A stretch of DNA of 50,625 nt, taken from positions 1-50,625 of the forward strand of contig JAFVTS010000029.1 of the NCBI GenBank assembly GCA_017503105.1. Reading direction: 5' to 3'. This DNA comes from Clostridia bacterium (GTDB lineage: Bacteria > Bacillota > Clostridia > Oscillospirales > CAG-272). Position 1 is the first letter of the stretch, and every line of letters begins with the position of its first letter. A program made the translations under genes and the position numbers. Of the stretch, positions 3,429-50,354 are shown in pieces. The notes below the pieces were generated by a model that was given only the letters and a program-made list of their open reading frames with translations, made no database searches and was not told the origin of the DNA.

Positions 3429-5162
3429 TTACGCCTCCTTCTTATCCATTTGAGAATAGTATATCTCGGTGTACTCGGTGTTATTGTCAAGAAGCTCGTC
3501 GTGAGTGCCTATTCCCGTTATCTTTCCGTCGTTCATAACGATTATCTCGTCGGCATCCTTGACGGAGCTTATGCGCTGTGCGATGATGATCTTCGTGCAG
3601 TCGGGAAGATCGTTTCTGAACGCTTCCCTGATCTGCGCCTCGGTCGCGGTGTCGACGGCACTCGTAGAGTCGTCAAGAATAAGTATCTTCGGCTTTTTGA
3701 GAAGCGCTCTTGCGATACAAAGTCTCTGCTTCTGACCGCCCGAGAGGTTAAGACCGCCCTTTTCAAGCTCGGTGTCATATCCATCCGCGAAGGAAGAAAC
3801 GAACTTGTCGGCACAGGAGCTGCGAGCCGCCGAAGCCATATCGTCATCACTTGCGTTCATATCGCCCCAACGGAGGTTGTCGGCAATACTGCCCGAGAAT
3901 AACAGGTTCTTTTGAAGAACTATTCCTATTCCGTCACGCAGATTCGTGAGCGAATAATCCTTGACGTTGACGCCGTCGACGAGCACCTCGCCCTCGTCGG
4001 TATCGTAAAGACGCGGTATCATTGAAATAAGCGTAGTTTTTCCGCAACCCGTCGAGCCTATGATGCCAACGGTAGAGCCTGCTTTTATCTTGAGATCAAT
4101 GTTTTCGAGAACCGCTTCCTCGCTGTTTTTATAATAACGGAAGCTCACGTTTTTGAACTCGATCTCGCCCTTTTCAACACGCTTTTCACGCTCTTTCGCA
4201 AGATGATCCTCGATATCTATCTTTTCGTCGAGCACCTCGCAAATTCTCCTGCCCGAAGCAAGCGCACGCGAGGACGTCATAAGAAGCATCGTCACCATCA
4301 TAAGAGATGAAAGTATCTGCATTGTGTAAGCAACGAACGCACTAAGATCGCCGATTTGCATTCCGCCGTCAAGAACTATACCGTGCCCGAACCAGATGAC
4401 GGCAATGACCGTCGCGTACATAAAGACCGTCATAACGGGTCCCATCCAGATCATAACCTTAACGGCATTCATTCCCGATTCCTTCAGGTCTCTGTTATCC
4501 TCTTCGAACTTATTTATCTCAAAATCCTCACGCACGAAGGACTTTACGACTCTTACGTTCGTTACGTTTTCTCTTACCGTGGAATTGAGCTTATCTATCT
4601 TCTTCTGCATTATTCCGAAGCGCGGGAAACTGATCCTTATAAGCACGAGGATCACTATTATCATAATAGGCATAGTAACCGCGAGCACGACGGAAAGCGA
4701 GGGCTTCAGTGCGACGGCCATTATGATTCCGCCGATAAGCATTCCCGGTGAGCGAAGAGCCATTCTGAGAAGCATATTGACGAAGTTCTGCACCTGCGTC
4801 ACGTCGTTGGTCATTCTCGTCACGAGCGAGCTCGTGGAAAATTTATCTATATTGGCGAACGAATATCCTTGTATCTTTGAATAAACGTCGCATCTTAAGT
4901 CAGCGGCAAAGTTTACCGACGCTTTGGAGCCGAAGTACGCGCCCGCAACGCCGCCCGCCATCATAAGAAGCACTATTCCCGCAAGTATTGCCGCATACCC
5001 GATGCTTGACGAACGCGTAAGAGTCCCCGCCTCGCCCTCGTTAATGATAGCCGCAAGCACAAGCGGCATAAACATCTCACCGATGACCTCCGTTATCATA
5101 CCGAGAGGTCCGAGTATAAACGACAAAAGATACGGTCTTATGTATTTAAACCATCTTTTCAC
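3429..5162 (-). CDS. ABC exporter, degenerate-site subunit of a heterodimer
   Basis: 577 residues: six-helix exporter domain (about 1-310) and ATPase (about 330-577). Walker A (GSTGCGKTT) and the signature (LSGGQKQRL) are intact. The catalytic Glu after Walker B is Asp498 (LILDDSTS), and the switch His is Gln529 (IIIAQRISS). Both changes are the known signature of the non-hydrolysing half in heterodimeric ABC exporters. The consensus ATP site would pair this LSGGQ with the Walker motifs of the downstream subunit. The start is GTG at 5162, inside the last codons of marR (17-bp overlap), with a GGAGGG ribosome binding site about 9 bases upstream. Confidence 0.93.
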   Translation of the reverse strand: MKRWFKYIRPYLLSFILGPLGMITEVIGEMFMPLVLAAIINEGEAGTLTRSSSIGYAAILAGIVLLMMAGGVAGAYFGSKASVNFAADLRCDVYSKIQGYSFANIDKFSTSSLVTRMTNDVTQVQNFVNMLLRMALRSPGMLIGGIIMAVALKPSLSVVLAVTMPIMIIVILVLIRISFPRFGIMQKKIDKLNSTVRENVTNVRVVKSFVREDFEINKFEEDNRDLKESGMNAVKVMIWMGPVMTVFMYATVIAVIWFGHGIVLDGGMQIGDLSAFVAYTMQILSSLMMVTMLLMTSSRALASGRRICEVLDEKIDIEDHLAKEREKRVEKGEIEFKNVSFRYYKNSEEAVLENIDLKIKAGSTVGIIGSTGCGKTTLISMIPRLYDTDEGEVLVDGVNVKDYSLTNLRDGIGIVLQKNLLFSGSIADNLRWGDMNASDDDMASAARSSCADKFVSSFADGYDTELEKGGLNLSGGQKQRLCIARALLKKPKILILDDSTSAVDTATEAQIREAFRNDLPDCTKIIIAQRISSVKDADEIIVMNDGKITGIGTHDELLDNNTEYTEIYYSQMDKKEA

Positions 5163-5616
5163 CTTGTTTAGCCCTCCATTCTGCCTCGCATTTTTCTGCG
5201 TTTTTCTTAATTTTGCTTATAATCTCTATAAACGTATTGATTTCTTCATCTTCAAGTCCATCGAACAGGGATCTGTCGACTTTACGGAACGCCTCACAGG
5301 AAAGCTCGACCGTTTTCCGCCCCTTTTCGGTAATTGATATCTCGTTGAACCTGTTGTCCGCTCCAAGGGTACGCTTGATATACCCCTCGGATTCAAGGCG
5401 CTGAAGCACGCCCGTCACGGCAGCAGGCGTTATCTCAAGGTGCTCCGCAAGCTCCCTTTGCGACGTAAGTCGACCGTTTTTAGCCAGATGCATCAGCGCC
5501 CTGTGCGCAGTACGCGGTATTCCGATCTCGCCAACTCTTGAGTCGATGAGATTACGGTGGATGCGACACGTTCGTATCGTTTTATTTATAGCCGAATAGA
5601 TCATTTCATCACTCAA
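5146..5616 (-). CDS. MarR-family transcriptional regulator
   Basis: 156 residues from the start chosen here. The winged-helix core includes GRLTSQRELAEHLEITPA and the recognition helix AAVTGVLQRLESEGYIKR, followed by a wing with ADNRF. The longest open frame begins at ATG 5637, but it has no ribosome binding site and encodes the AAAGGAG sequence within itself. That AAAGGAG lies 7 bases before TTG 5616, so TTG is preferred; ATG 5604 is a possible alternative. As first gene of the exporter operon it probably represses its own promoter and is released by a small ligand, as in other marR-exporter operons. Strand order is marR, degenerate ABC subunit, complete ABC subunit. Confidence 0.88.
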   Translation of the reverse strand: MSDEMIYSAINKTIRTCRIHRNLIDSRVGEIGIPRTAHRALMHLAKNGRLTSQRELAEHLEITPAAVTGVLQRLESEGYIKRTLGADNRFNEISITEKGRKTVELSCEAFRKVDRSLFDGLEDEEINTFIEIISKIKKNAEKCEAEWRAKQGEKMV

Positions 5617-5644
5617 AGCATTTTCTCCTTTCAACATAAAATTC

Positions 5645-17454: not shown

Positions 17455-17482
17455 TTGACTTTTTCCTTTTTTGGTGTATAAT
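17455..17482 (+). promoter_or_regulatory. Promoter of yitT-family gene
   Basis: TTGACT (17455-17460), 16 bp, TATAAT (17477-17482), diverging from the ligA promoter. Confidence 0.7.
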
Positions 17483-17538: not shown

Positions 17539-18459
17539 ATGAAAACACGTTCCGAAAAGATACGTTACGTCCTTCTTTTGAATTTCGGCATCCTGCTTAT
17601 GGCAGCGGGAATATATTTCTTCAAAGCGCCAAACGGATTTGCAACGGGCGGCGTCAGCGGTATCTCCATAATACTTGCAAGACTCTTCCCCGCCGTATCC
17701 CAGGCAACGTATATGATGGTCATAAATATCGCTCTTCTCATAGTCGGAGTCCTCGTGCTCGGCAGGGTGTGCGGTTTTCTTACCATTTACTGCGCTATTA
17801 TGATGTCGCTTGAGAATATGCTCTTCGAGTTCTTCTTCCCCTTCGTTCCGAATGCGGCGGAAGCCTCTGCGATGCCGCCGTACAGATTCCCTATTCCGAG
17901 CGGAACGCTGACGGACATTCCCTTAATGGAGCTCGTTTACGCCGTGATGCTGACGGGTATCGGAGCGGCTATAATATTCAGATGCAAGGCGTCCTCGGGC
18001 GGCACGGATATAGTCGCGCTCATCTTGAAAAAGTACACGCATATGAACGTAGGTCACGCCCTTTTAGTTTCGGATTTCGTAATAGCGGCATCGACGTTCT
18101 TCGTTTATCAGAGTGCTGAAAAGGGGCTTTTTGCCCTGCTCGGTCTTTTCGCCAAGGTCTTTATCGTCGACGACGTGCTTGACTCTATCAATATGTGCAA
18201 GTCGTTTATGATAATCACGACGAAGCCGAAGGAGATAGACGAGTTTATAATGACAGATCTTCACCACGGAGCAACGGTGTACGACGCAAAGGGCGCTTAT
18301 TCGGGCGAGGACAAAAGTATTATTATCACCGTATGCAAAAGAAGCGAGGCTTTAAGACTCAGAAAAAGGGTCAAGGAGATCGATCCCACCTCATTCATTA
18401 TTATAACCAAAACGAGTGAGATAATGGGCAAGGGATTCCGCGACAATATAAATAATTGA
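17539..18459 (+). CDS. YitT-family membrane protein (DUF161 + DUF2179)
   Basis: 306 residues. The N-terminal part has about five hydrophobic segments, starting with LLLNFGILLMAAGIYFF, and the family signature GFATGGVSGISIIL plus CKASSGGTDIVALIL. The C-terminal cytosolic DUF2179 domain contains HHGATVYDAKGAYSGEDK. Members are inner-membrane proteins of poorly known transport-like function. ATG 17539 follows an AGAGG site. There is no separate terminator; the only hairpin after the stop codon is the palindrome that also carries the promoter of the next gene. Confidence 0.93.
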   Translation: MKTRSEKIRYVLLLNFGILLMAAGIYFFKAPNGFATGGVSGISIILARLFPAVSQATYMMVINIALLIVGVLVLGRVCGFLTIYCAIMMSLENMLFEFFFPFVPNAAEASAMPPYRFPIPSGTLTDIPLMELVYAVMLTGIGAAIIFRCKASSGGTDIVALILKKYTHMNVGHALLVSDFVIAASTFFVYQSAEKGLFALLGLFAKVFIVDDVLDSINMCKSFMIITTKPKEIDEFIMTDLHHGATVYDAKGAYSGEDKSIIITVCKRSEALRLRKRVKEIDPTSFIIITKTSEIMGKGFRDNINN

Positions 18460-18460
18460 C

Positions 18461-18518
18461 TTGATTTTTCACCGCCTTCGTGCTATAATTAAAGAGCACG
18501 GAAGGCGGTGACGTTTTT
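18461..18518 (+). promoter_or_regulatory. Composite terminator/promoter element, copy 1
   Basis: CACCGCCTTCGTGCT (18470-18484) and AGCACGGAAGGCGGTG (18495-18510) are inverted repeats with one bulged base. A perfect TATAAT (18484-18489) straddles the end of the left arm and the loop; TTGATT (18461-18466) lies 17 bp upstream of it. TTTTT follows the right arm at 18514-18518, right before the ATG. Transcripts entering from yitT would fold into a terminator-like hairpin that also hides the GGAAGG ribosome binding site. Transcripts starting from the internal promoter would begin near 18496, lack the left arm and escape it. A nearly identical copy lies at 19440-19498. Confidence 0.75.
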
Positions 18519-19424
18519 ATGAAAAAAATAGGAATAAGCTCGTATTATCTGCAAAATCTCTTCGGTCCTACAAGGGCGCTTGAAATATTGGCGGCGAGCG
18601 GCTTTGACTCCGTCGACTTCGATCTTGGAGAATACGGTGTCGGAAAAGACGAGATATACAAAAGCGACGAGGCGATGCTTGAGCATTTCACAAGGATAAA
18701 AGAGCGAGCAGACGAGCTCGGACTCATCATAAGTCAGACTCACGGTAGGTGCTGCACCTACACACCCGAAAAAAAGCAGTGCGACTTTGCGAAATGGGTC
18801 AGCGAGCGCGATCTTTTCGCGACGTCGATCCTCGGCGCACCCGCTTGCGTAATACATAATATCTCTACGGGAAAGTGGGGCGTCAGGGATCCCGAATTTA
18901 TGCACGAAAAAAACGCAGAGTTCATTTCGGATATTTCCCCGTTTGCCGAAAAGCACGGCGTTTGTATCGGCTTTGAAACGTTCGGTGACGTTTGGCTCGA
19001 CGGAAAAAGACATCTCGACTTCTTCGGTGACTCCTACGAGTTAAAAAAGCAGTTCGATATGACGAAAACGAAAAACAAGGTGCTTTGTATGGATACGGGA
19101 CACACCAACAAGGCGTGCTCCGTCGGGAAAGAAAAAGGGCTCGACCTTCCGCACGTTGAAGAATCCATCAAGCTTTTCGGCAAAGACCTGAAGCTTTTGC
19201 ATTTGAACGACAACAACGGTTATACGGATCAGCACTTGCCCCCTTACTTCTCGGGTTATCAATTCTCACTCAATTGGGATTCAATAATGGAAGCGCTTGA
19301 GGGCGTAGGATACGACGGAGTTTATAACTTTGAGCTCAATCTTGACTTTTTAAAGCCCGTTATTCTTGATATATTCCCCGTACTCGGAAAATATCTGCGC
19401 GAGTTTATAAACAAATACGAATAA
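18519..19424 (+). CDS. TIM-barrel sugar phosphate isomerase/epimerase, paralog A
   Basis: 301 residues of the AP-endonuclease-2/xylose-isomerase-like fold. Likely metal and substrate positions are in IGFETFGDVW, CMDTGHTN, LLHLNDNNG and VYNFELN, the Glu-Asp/His-His-Glu pattern of this superfamily. It is cytosolic, without signal peptide. Expected to isomerise or epimerise a sugar or sugar acid; the exact substrate is not evident. It is a tandem paralog of 19499-20404 (same length, shared motifs throughout). Translation begins at ATG 18519, with the ribosome binding site inside the right arm of the palindrome. Confidence 0.87.
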   Translation: MKKIGISSYYLQNLFGPTRALEILAASGFDSVDFDLGEYGVGKDEIYKSDEAMLEHFTRIKERADELGLIISQTHGRCCTYTPEKKQCDFAKWVSERDLFATSILGAPACVIHNISTGKWGVRDPEFMHEKNAEFISDISPFAEKHGVCIGFETFGDVWLDGKRHLDFFGDSYELKKQFDMTKTKNKVLCMDTGHTNKACSVGKEKGLDLPHVEESIKLFGKDLKLLHLNDNNGYTDQHLPPYFSGYQFSLNWDSIMEALEGVGYDGVYNFELNLDFLKPVILDIFPVLGKYLREFINKYE

Positions 19425-19439
19425 AGCATTTACATACGC

Positions 19440-19498
19440 TTGATTTTTCACCGCCTTTTGTGCTATAATAAAAGAGCACGGAAGGCGGTGGTGTTTTT
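19440..19498 (+). promoter_or_regulatory. Composite terminator/promoter element, copy 2
   Basis: CACCGCCTTTTGTGCT (19449-19464) pairs with AGCACGGAAGGCGGTG (19475-19490) with G-U pairs at two positions. TTGATT (19440-19445) and TATAAT (19464-19469) are 18 bp apart. TTTTT (19494-19498) precedes the ATG. From -35 to start codon the two copies differ at only about five positions. Confidence 0.75.
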
Positions 19499-20404
19499 AT
19501 GAAAAAAATCGGTATTTCAACAGGAGCCGTACAAAAAGCAAAGGGTCCCTTCGACACCTTGGAGCTTTGCGCGAGGTGCGACTTTGATTCCGTCGACTTC
19601 GACCTTGAACGTTACGGCGGAGGAAGTGACCCGATCTACAAAAGCTTTGATGCTATGACAGAGCATTTTACAAAGCTGAAGGAGCGCGCCGATGAGCTTG
19701 GTCTTATCATCAGCCAGACGCACGGTCGCTGTAAATCGTACACCCCCGACGAAGAGCAATCAAAACGATTTCTCGCCCTTACGGAGCGCGACCTTTACGC
19801 AAGTGCTCTGCTCGGTGCTCCCGCGTGTGTAATACATAACATCAATACAAGCTTCTGGGGAGAGGCAAGCGCTGAATTTATACACGCAAAAAATGCCGAA
19901 ATGATGGCAGACATCGCCCCATTTGCGGAAAAGAACGGTGTGAAGATCGGCTTTGAAACGTTTGGAGGGGCAAAACGCGCCGACGGAAGGTGCGTTCAGT
20001 TTTTCGGCGACTCCTACGAGCTTATGAAGCAGTACAATTTGGTAAAAACGAAGAATAAAGTTATTTGCCTTGATACAGGACATACGAACGAAGCTGTCTA
20101 TACGGCATCGATAGACGGACGGCGTGTCCCCGACGTTGTAGAGTCGGTGCACATATTCGGAAAGGAACTCGGGCTTCTTCACCTTCACGATAACAACAGC
20201 TTCTCAGACCAGCATCTGCTGCCCTTGCAAAGCGGGAAAACGTGCGGTGTTGATTGGGACTCTCTGATGACGGCACTTGACGAGGTGGAATATTCGGGAG
20301 TTTACAACTTCGAGTTGAATTTATCGTTTTTTGTTCCCTATATGGACGAATACCTTCCCATAGTTGCAAAATACCTCAAGGATTTTATGAAAAAGTACGA
20401 ATAA
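19499..20404 (+). CDS. TIM-barrel sugar phosphate isomerase/epimerase, paralog B
   Basis: 301 residues, same fold and motif order as its upstream neighbour: IGFETFGGAK, CLDTGHTN, LLHLHDNNS, VYNFELN. By eye the two proteins share roughly half of their residues, so the duplication is not recent at protein level although the regulatory DNA in front of each is nearly identical. Different residues around the barrel openings (for example GDVWLDGKRH against GGAKRADGRC) suggest related but distinct substrates. A terminator follows 3 bp after the stop. Confidence 0.87.
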   Translation: MKKIGISTGAVQKAKGPFDTLELCARCDFDSVDFDLERYGGGSDPIYKSFDAMTEHFTKLKERADELGLIISQTHGRCKSYTPDEEQSKRFLALTERDLYASALLGAPACVIHNINTSFWGEASAEFIHAKNAEMMADIAPFAEKNGVKIGFETFGGAKRADGRCVQFFGDSYELMKQYNLVKTKNKVICLDTGHTNEAVYTASIDGRRVPDVVESVHIFGKELGLLHLHDNNSFSDQHLLPLQSGKTCGVDWDSLMTALDEVEYSGVYNFELNLSFFVPYMDEYLPIVAKYLKDFMKKYE

Positions 20405-20407
20405 CAA

Positions 20408-20440
20408 AAAGCTCCGTGGAAAAACGGAGCTTTCGTTTTA
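20408..20440. terminator. Bidirectional terminator
   Basis: AAAGCTCCGT (20408-20417) pairs with ACGGAGCTTT (20424-20433), then CGTTTTATT on the plus strand; the minus strand reads into GCTTTTTGTT. Shared by isomerase B and the convergent aminotransferase. Confidence 0.88.
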
Positions 20441-50270: not shown

Positions 50271-50354
50271 GCGGGAGTGGCGGAACTGGCAGACGCGCAC
50301 GTTTGAGGGGCGTGTGGTTTTACCGTACGGGTTCAATTCCCGTTTCCCGCACCA
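50271..50354 (+). tRNA. tRNA-Leu (anticodon GAG)
   Basis: Acceptor GCGGGAG (50271-50277) pairs with TTCCCGC before the encoded A-CCA (50351-50354). The anticodon stem CACGT/GCGTG encloses TTGAGGG, anticodon GAG at 50305-50307. A variable arm of class II length (GGTTTTACC) and the T-arm ACGGG-TTCAATT-CCCGT follow. Reads CUC and CUU leucine codons. Confidence 0.96.

What the first reader, a model, noticed from the sequence alone, without database searches (positions are those of the whole stretch)
18461..19501. Duplicated terminator-with-embedded-promoter ahead of two paralogous isomerase genes
Seen: the two isomerase genes are each preceded by a 15-16 bp inverted repeat whose loop holds a TATAAT box (-35 TTGATT 17-18 bp upstream), followed by TTTTT directly before the ATG. 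The right arm contains the ribosome binding site. Inference: incoming read-through RNA would terminate or hide the RBS, whereas RNA begun at the internal promoter lacks the left arm and is translated. Each gene would thus be insulated from its upstream neighbour by one compact element; neither yitT nor isomerase A has another terminator. The elements differ at about five of 62 positions while the proteins have diverged to roughly half identity, suggesting selection or gene conversion on the element.
Basis: partly seen in the sequence, partly recalled or inferred. Interest (0 to 1): 0.8.

Follow-up and report, generated by a model that had tools for sequence, protein, structure and literature searches.

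The report
Promoter hidden inside terminator-like RNA hairpin
Two neighbouring bacterial genes each start from a promoter placed inside a hairpin that can form only in RNA arriving from the gene before, so stray transcripts are probably stopped or left untranslated while the gene's own transcript is free; related bacteria appear to use the same design at other, unrelated genes.

Summary
Each isomerase gene is preceded by a 15-16 bp inverted repeat (-24 to -28 kcal/mol) with an extended -10 box in its loop, a -35 just before the left arm, the Shine-Dalgarno (SD) in the right arm and TTTTT before ATG. In read-through RNA the SD costs 17-19 kcal/mol to open, against 0.6-6 from the internal start. 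The two copies are 54/59 identical although four-fold sites are only 36% identical.

The full element was found only here, but the design recurs. In 394 genomes of the order, a hairpin-SD-T-run-ATG pattern occurs 110 times (87 genomes), against 5 with ATG scrambled and 21 with the left arm reversed. Two of 50 protein families are known THF riboswitch platforms. Of the other 48, 13 have a promoter whose -10 lies inside the hairpin (0 of 300 shuffles reach this).

Upstream of ksgA-like genes in one genus the promoter-in-hairpin is present in 23 of 30 genes examined. In 20 aligned rows 7 of 16 pairs show compensatory change, with 32 G.U and 0 A.C cells: selection on the sense RNA, which only read-through transcripts can fold.

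The logic matches T4 gene e and I-TevI. Termination at copy 1 is doubtful. Nothing was tested at the bench.

The parts
17455..17482 (+). strong promoter-like site before yitT (TTGACT-16-TATAAT), likely source of read-through into copy 1
   Evidence: 11 of 12 consensus matches
17539..18459 (+). yitT-family gene (PF02588 + PF10035), upstream neighbour of copy 1
18461..18489 (+). copy 1 promoter: TTGATT-17-TATAAT with TG before the -10
18470..18510 (+). copy 1 hairpin: left arm 18470-18484 lies in the promoter spacer, loop holds the -10, right arm 18495-18510 = start of leader and SD
18502..18510 (+). copy 1 Shine-Dalgarno AAGGCGGTG inside right arm
18514..18518 (+). copy 1 T-run abutting the start codon
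18519..19424 (+). isomerase A (xylose-isomerase-like TIM barrel, PF01261); exact function unknown
19440..19469 (+). copy 2 promoter: TTGATT-18-TATAAT with TG before the -10
19449..19490 (+). copy 2 hairpin, arms 19449-19464 and 19475-19490 with two G.U pairs
19482..19490 (+). copy 2 Shine-Dalgarno AAGGCGGTG inside right arm
19494..19498 (+). copy 2 T-run abutting the start codon
19499..20404 (+). isomerase B (PF01261), tandem paralogue, 58% identical to A
20408..20433 (+). ordinary terminator after isomerase B
   Evidence: score +9.8

Best explanation
Each element is a compact one-way junction. The promoter's spacer holds the left arm of a hairpin, its -10 is in the loop, and its transcript starts at about the first base of the right arm. 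RNA coming from the upstream gene carries both arms, folds, and is either terminated at the T-run or continues with its SD locked. RNA from the internal promoter has only the right arm, cannot fold the hairpin, keeps the SD free and is translated. Each isomerase is therefore expressed from its own promoter, insulated from yitT and from isomerase A. Shown: sequence anatomy, predicted folding, conservation between the copies, recurrence in the order, RNA-level covariation at ksgA-like genes. Inferred: that the promoter fires, that read-through RNA occurs, terminates or is untranslated, and that insulation is the benefit. For the window pair RBS locking is the safer half, because the terminator score is poor for copy 1.
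For: SD opening cost 17.0-19.0 kcal/mol in read-through RNA against 0.6-6.0 from assumed starts at 18493/19473 and 2 nt either side. Element 54/59 identical while four-fold sites are 36% (18 of 50 codons) and the best 59-nt coding window is 78%; the promoter spacer, free to drift in an ordinary promoter, is 16/18 identical (one search gives the binomial). The differences in the arms keep RNA pairing (G.U) apart from one bulge. Recurrence in the order: 110 pattern matches in 87 of 394 genomes against 5 matches with ATG scrambled and 36 with the left arm reversed, 15 of which are the same places. Of 111 fetched instances 86 open an ORF, and in 82 of those the SD is paired (no control for the ORF rate was run). 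In one representative of each of 48 non-THF protein families, 13 have a promoter of score 9 or more with the -10 inside the hairpin (300 shuffles: mean 3.5, maximum 11) and 8 have score 10 or more (mean 0.65, maximum 3). ksgA-like genes: 28 of 30 have a promoter of score 10 or more, all 28 with 17 bp spacing and TTG in the -35; 23 of 30 have spacer/leader pairing of -19.7 kcal/mol or stronger; 20 of 30 score as terminators. Covariation in 20 aligned rows: 7 of 16 pairs changed on both sides, 0 of 500 shuffles, slid controls 1-3; 32 G.U and 0 A.C cells.
Against: Terminator score of copy 1 is -28.5. Of the closest isomerase homologues in other genomes, 0 of 11 genes examined carries the element. 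In two genome samples the spacer/leader pairing of other short-leader genes is close to the permuted null: at -12 kcal/mol or below 14 observed (the two copies included) against 8.0 expected in the own genome, and 12 against 10.9 in five relatives; so the design is rare per genome. 35 of the 48 non-THF families show no clear internal promoter, so the wider hairpin-SD-ATG class is mixed. Of the 13 with one, 4 are not strongly locked (read-through cost 1.4-8.3) and only 6 score as terminators (which misses loops over 15). In at least 3 of 30 ksgA-like genes (L354, L362, L364, by eye) the SD lies outside the hairpin. 7 of 30 lack the spacer/leader pairing. The 30 were mostly the best-scoring loci of 56 matches, a sample biased towards close relatives of the query. 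No expression data.
Confidence: 0.72

Rival explanations
1. Plain signal packing: a compact genome places a terminator, a promoter and an RBS on the same 60 bases to save space; insulation is a by-product and nothing beyond ordinary termination is selected.
For: Upstream stop codons lie close: 72 of 86 recurring instances have a same-strand upstream gene, median 28 nt; in some ksgA-like genes the SD has moved out of the hairpin while the T-run stays (by eye).
Against: The promoter stays inside the hairpin with 17 bp spacing through turnover of arm sequence; copy 1 in the window scores poorly as a terminator yet keeps its arms.
Confidence: 0.15
2. Gene conversion or recent copying explains the similarity of the two window copies; the hairpin itself is a chance or template-switch palindrome without function.
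For: Exactly two full copies in the genome and none before the 11 closest homologues examined; the right arms are identical.
Against: Similarity runs from the -35 to the first codons and stops there; the same architecture recurs before unrelated genes with controls.
Confidence: 0.08
3. DNA operator: the palindrome over the -10 is bound by a repressor.
For: A long dyad centred near a -10 is a common operator position (general knowledge); a MarR-family gene lies about 13 kb away at 5146-5637.
Against: Copy 2 is only 14/16 as DNA, and the outer arms span 41 and 42 bp in the two copies; no further full copy in the genome (I viewed 6 of its 21 partial hits); at ksgA-like genes all 32 wobble cells are G.U in the sense RNA and none is A.C.
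Confidence: 0.04
4. Regulated attenuator: read-through RNA is the regulated product and a ligand, protein or ribosome melts the hairpin, as in riboswitch expression platforms.
For: The same pattern search returns THF riboswitch platforms.
Against: No Rfam match in the window apart from one tRNA; only 1 and 15 nt lie between the stop codons and the -35, leaving little room for an aptamer; a good promoter sits in the loop.
Confidence: 0.05

Closest known systems
Bacteriophage T4 gene e (lysozyme), soc, 49 and intron endonuclease I-TevI: RBS-sequestering hairpin bypassed by an internal late promoter
   Same: Upstream transcripts fold a hairpin over the SD; transcripts from a promoter just before the RBS lack the 5' arm and are translated (described for gene e and I-TevI in PMC3014915 and PMC2988022, passages seen).
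   Different: T4 uses phage late or middle promoters to time expression; here a sigma-70-type extended -10 promoter in a bacterial chromosome, usually with a T-run, at cellular genes, duplicated in tandem, and recurring in one bacterial order.
Protection of IS10/IS50 transposase genes from impinging transcription (recalled; no paper on it was read)
   Same: Outside transcripts form a structure that hides the transposase start (recalled).
   Different: There the purpose is transposition control. A mobile-element example of the present architecture was found before an IS605 OrfB-type gene (L123).
THF riboswitch (RF01831) expression platform
   Same: Terminator-like hairpin with SD in the right arm, T-run, then ATG; found by the same pattern.
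   Different: Has a ligand aptamer upstream; no aptamer was found in the window.
Intrinsic terminator
   Same: GC-rich stem followed by a T-run at the end of the upstream gene.
   Different: The left arm is in a promoter spacer, the loop is a -10 box, the right arm holds an SD; copy 1 scores poorly as a terminator.

Membership tests
T4 gene e / I-TevI type internal-promoter bypass of an RBS hairpin | SD sequestered in RNA started upstream | tested here: met
   (17-19 kcal/mol to open, by prediction)
T4 gene e / I-TevI type internal-promoter bypass of an RBS hairpin | promoter placed so that its transcript lacks the 5' arm | tested here: met
   by sequence, start expected at or next to the first base of the right arm (not mapped)
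T4 gene e / I-TevI type internal-promoter bypass of an RBS hairpin | measured repression of translation from the long transcript | not testable with these tools
   needs reporter or ribosome profiling
T4 gene e / I-TevI type internal-promoter bypass of an RBS hairpin | phage late or middle promoter giving temporal control | tested here: not met
   sigma-70-type extended -10 promoter beside cellular genes
Intrinsic terminator | stable stem plus proximal T-run, score above 0 | tested here: inconclusive
   copy 1 -28.5, copy 2 +6.8; 79 of 678 gene ends and 0 of 556 intragenic windows score above 0 (scoring formula recalled)
Known cis-regulatory RNA (Rfam) | match at gathering score | tested here: not met
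   only a tRNA at 50271-50351
DNA operator | conserved DNA dyad with fixed half-site spacing | tested here: not met
   14/16 in copy 2 and 41 against 42 bp span
IS10/IS50 impinging-transcription protection | located at the start of a transposase gene of a mobile element | tested here: not met
   genes are PF01261 TIM barrels; only the two tandem full copies in the genome

The most novel reading that the evidence does not exclude
A general one-way transcription valve exists as a gene-junction design in this bacterial order: the promoter of the downstream gene is written into the left arm and loop of a terminator/RBS-lock hairpin, so polymerases arriving from upstream are stopped or silenced and polymerases starting inside are not. 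It has arisen repeatedly before unrelated genes, and before ksgA-like genes it is maintained across the species of a genus by selection on an RNA structure that the gene's own mRNA never contains.
Probability: 0.55. Interest if true: 0.82.

Novelty: new variant of a known kind. Interest (0 to 1): 0.7.

Why it matters
It would explain how tightly packed genes stay independent without room for separate terminator, promoter and leader, and it shows selection acting on a hairpin that is absent from the gene's own mRNA. It gives a roughly 60-base natural insulator that could be used as a part. It also warns that predicted terminators directly before start codons may be promoters, and that operon predictions based on short intergenic distance may fail here. 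I found no description of it as a chromosomal module; that rests on searches and 96 of an open-access library only.

Tried and rejected
Copies of the exact element elsewhere: BLAST of the own genome and 58 others and a pattern in 394 genomes found no full copy beyond the pair. One search did give partial hits at E up to 0.1 in 32 of 59 genomes (own included); the best outside is 78% over 49 query bases in G020. I viewed 18 of its 29 outside loci and 6 of 21 partial own-genome hits. One of them (L060, G004) led to the wider class: a hairpin with SD, T-run and ATG but no -10 box recognised in the loop. A mobile promoter repeat was rejected.

A scan of named genomes and viral contigs for CACCNCCTT-TATAAT-AAGGNGGTG: 43 instances in 31 + 9 stretches, many of them divergent SDs or weak stems. 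Two have a TTGACA-17-TATAAT promoter, 18 pairs and a start codon with an ORF directly after (L088, L123). A shorter viral pattern gave 4 stretches against 1 for a scrambled arm, too few to weigh. The Peribacillus relative of L123 lacks the hairpin.

General pairing of promoter spacer with leader in the own genome and in five genus relatives: close to the permuted null apart from the window pair. This made the module look unique until searched with the T-run and ATG.

Closest homologous isomerases: 11 genes from 9 genomes, no element by eye and RNA folding; spacer/leader pairing could be computed for 8 of the 11. In G028 and G434 a palindrome there reads by eye as a pair of divergent promoters. 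A scan of named genomes with the isomerase A protein found no relative.

The first tree used wrong translations for G429 and G434 because two minus-strand loci were not turned; one search repeats it correctly (A and B sister, 100/99). One search failed to find the genes and was replaced. The terminator scan allows loops up to 15, up to 11; longer loops are missed by both. The terminator score is a recalled formula.

Paper searches gave nothing relevant; 41 and 42 were seen as listings only; one returned one paper, seen in passages.

Full report
What is there. Both isomerase genes begin with a nearly identical 59-column element. It consists of TTGATT, a spacer that holds the left arm of a 15-16 bp inverted repeat, an extended -10 box (TGC-TATAAT) in the loop, a right arm that is the first transcribed sequence and contains the SD AAGGCGGTG, three bases, TTTTT and the ATG. 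The hairpins fold at -24 to -28 kcal/mol; the regions have z-scores of -3.9 and -4.4. One base separates the yitT stop codon from the -35 of copy 1, and 15 bases separate the isomerase A stop codon from that of copy 2. yitT has a strong promoter-like site of its own, so read-through is expected.

How it should behave. Predicted cost of opening the SD is 17-19 kcal/mol in RNA that started upstream and 0.6-6.0 kcal/mol in RNA started near the first base of the right arm (starts assumed, not mapped). As terminators the two copies differ: copy 1 scores -28.5 and copy 2 +6.8, on a scale where 79 of 678 gene ends and 0 of 556 intragenic windows exceed 0 (formula recalled). So RBS locking is predicted for both copies, and termination only for copy 2.

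Conservation of the pair. A and B are 58% identical proteins, sister to each other in the tree (100/99). Four-fold sites are 36% identical (18 of 50) and the best 59-nt coding window is 78%, while the element is 54/59. The promoter spacer, which need not be conserved in an ordinary promoter, is 16/18. The changes in the left arm keep RNA pairing through two G.U pairs or leave one bulge, whereas the DNA dyad is degraded (14/16; arm span 41 against 42 bp). Selection fits best; conversion is not excluded.

Is it unique? No other full copy was found, and of the closest isomerase homologues in other genomes 0 of 11 genes has it (by eye and folding, pairing computed for 8). Pairing between spacer and leader in the 149 other promoter-like short-leader genes of this genome sample and in 146 of five relatives is close to the permuted null: at -12 kcal/mol or below 14 (the two copies included) against 8.0 expected, and 12 against 10.9.

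The design recurs. Searching for any hairpin CCNCCTT...AAGGNGG followed by a T-run and ATG gave 10 matches in 8 of 69 genomes of the genus, with 2 for the reversed pattern, and 110 matches, counted by hand from the listing, in 87 of 394 genomes of the order. Both counts include the two window copies and a third place in the own genome. Controls on the same 394 genomes: ATG changed to AGT, 5 matches in 5 genomes; left arm reversed, 36 matches in 28 genomes, of which 15 are the same places as true matches, leaving 21, a few of which also look like hairpins; whole pattern reversed, 13. I fetched 111 distinct instances (from; the window copies were left out, and four further identical copies in genome G415 were not fetched). 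Of these, 86 open an ORF of at least 60 codons (or at least 40 running off the end), and in 82 of the 86 at least 5 of 7 SD bases are paired upstream (no control for the ORF rate). 72 of 86 have a same-strand upstream gene, median 28 nt away.

Known and unknown members. The 86 genes form 50 protein families. One representative of each was scanned against Rfam. Two families (19 instances) I set aside as THF riboswitch platforms: RF01831 matched five of six scanned members (L253, L261, L279, L322, L324; not L273), and the rest were assigned by family. This shows that the pattern finds real SD-locking hairpins. In the representatives of the other 48 families, a promoter with its -10 inside the hairpin reaches score 8 in 20, score 9 in 13 and score 10 in 8; 300 shuffles give means of 11.3, 3.5 and 0.65 with maxima 19, 11 and 3, and same-sized windows elsewhere give 0-3 at score 9 and 0-1 at score 10. 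Ten of the 13 proteins were scanned with Pfam: rRNA adenine dimethylase (here called ksgA-like by inference), pseudouridine synthase, MFS transporter, LigT-like enzyme, another PF01261 TIM barrel and, in the window's own genome, a Coat F protein are above the curated cut-off; PHP, DUF3792 and zinc-ribbon matches are below it; one has no match. In 9 of 13 the SD costs over 15 kcal/mol to open in read-through RNA and at most 5.2 from the internal start; in the other 4 it costs 1.4-8.3. 6 of 13 score as terminators. The other 35 families show no clear internal promoter and remain unexplained.

The ksgA test. In the genus of G303, 54 of 61 genomes have a ksgA-like match, 56 matches in all; the 30 loci returned, mostly the best-scoring, were all examined. 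28 of 30 have a promoter of score 10 or more, all 28 with 17 bp spacing and TTG in the -35. 23 of 30 have spacer/leader pairing of -19.7 kcal/mol or stronger. In 22 of 30 the upstream stop codon is within 30 nt of the spacer start. 20 of 30 score as terminators. Three without that pairing (L340, L341, L347) keep promoter and T-run but use, by eye, a shifted hairpin whose left arm contains the -10 itself. In L354, L362 and L364 the SD lies, by eye, beyond the T-run. Twenty rows with the same geometry (of the 23 with strong pairing; three with a long loop left out) were aligned without structure. Of 16 pairs 7 show changes on both sides, 12 cells, 95.8% paired; no shuffle of 500 reaches any of the five measures, and slid controls give 1-3 such pairs; a consensus fold of the same alignment finds 14 of these pairs. 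In the 15 inner pairs there are 255 Watson-Crick, 32 G.U, 6 other mismatches and no A.C. Rows are related, so cells are not independent events, but the asymmetry points to the sense RNA and away from a DNA operator.

Mechanism. A hairpin of the sense strand can form only in RNA that started upstream of the left arm. Its maintenance around an intact promoter means that selection acts on what happens to read-through RNA. Stopping it and hiding its RBS are the two available outcomes; the T-run is prominent at the ksgA-like genes, the SD overlap is prominent in the window. That the benefit is insulation of neighbours is inference.

Compared with what is known. Phage T4 gene e and I-TevI use the same bypass, and soc and 49 are listed with them as RBS-sequestering cases (PMC3014915 and PMC2988022, passages seen). 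Protection of transposase genes from outside transcription is similar (recalled). The same architecture stands before an IS605 OrfB-type gene on a viral contig (L123) and in weaker form before a possible LAGLIDADG gene (L219, match below the Pfam cut-off). What seems new is its use as a chromosomal gene-junction element with a housekeeping-type promoter and T-run, recurring across protein families of one order.

Noticed in passing
L338-L367 (upstream of ksgA-like genes, genus of G303): Promoter-in-hairpin conserved with covariation; in L340, L341 and L347 the hairpin is shifted so that the -10 itself is in the left arm.
   Followed up: yes
L123 770-830: TTGACA-17-TATAAT with the -10 in an 18-pair SD-locking hairpin directly before an IS605 OrfB-type gene on a viral contig.
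   Followed up: partly
L088 6865-6925: Same architecture in a Veillonellaceae MAG before a GTG-start ORF of 197 aa without Pfam match.
   Followed up: partly
L219 5857-6320 (minus strand): Weaker version before a short phage ORF with a sub-threshold LAGLIDADG match.
   Followed up: partly
35 of 48 non-THF families (e.g. L224/L225, L286, L244): Hairpin-SD-T-run-ATG without a clear internal promoter and without an Rfam match at the element; some are conserved between genomes. Possible undescribed leaders or regulators.
   Followed up: no
L240 (G415:C7:134858-134891) and four other places in G415: Five identical copies of a short hairpin-SD-ATG element in one genome; maybe a mobile or multicopy gene.
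   Followed up: no
L031 and L132 upstream regions: Homologous isomerase genes in G028 and G434 are preceded by a long palindrome that reads by eye as two divergent promoters.
   Followed up: partly
L157 near 17377 and L170 near 15772: Promoter-overlapping palindromes in the window's own genome: one with the -35 in the loop, one with the -10 in the loop but the SD outside.
   Followed up: no
L321 1831-1899: Pistol ribozyme match (RF02679) about 800 nt downstream of a pattern instance.
   Followed up: no
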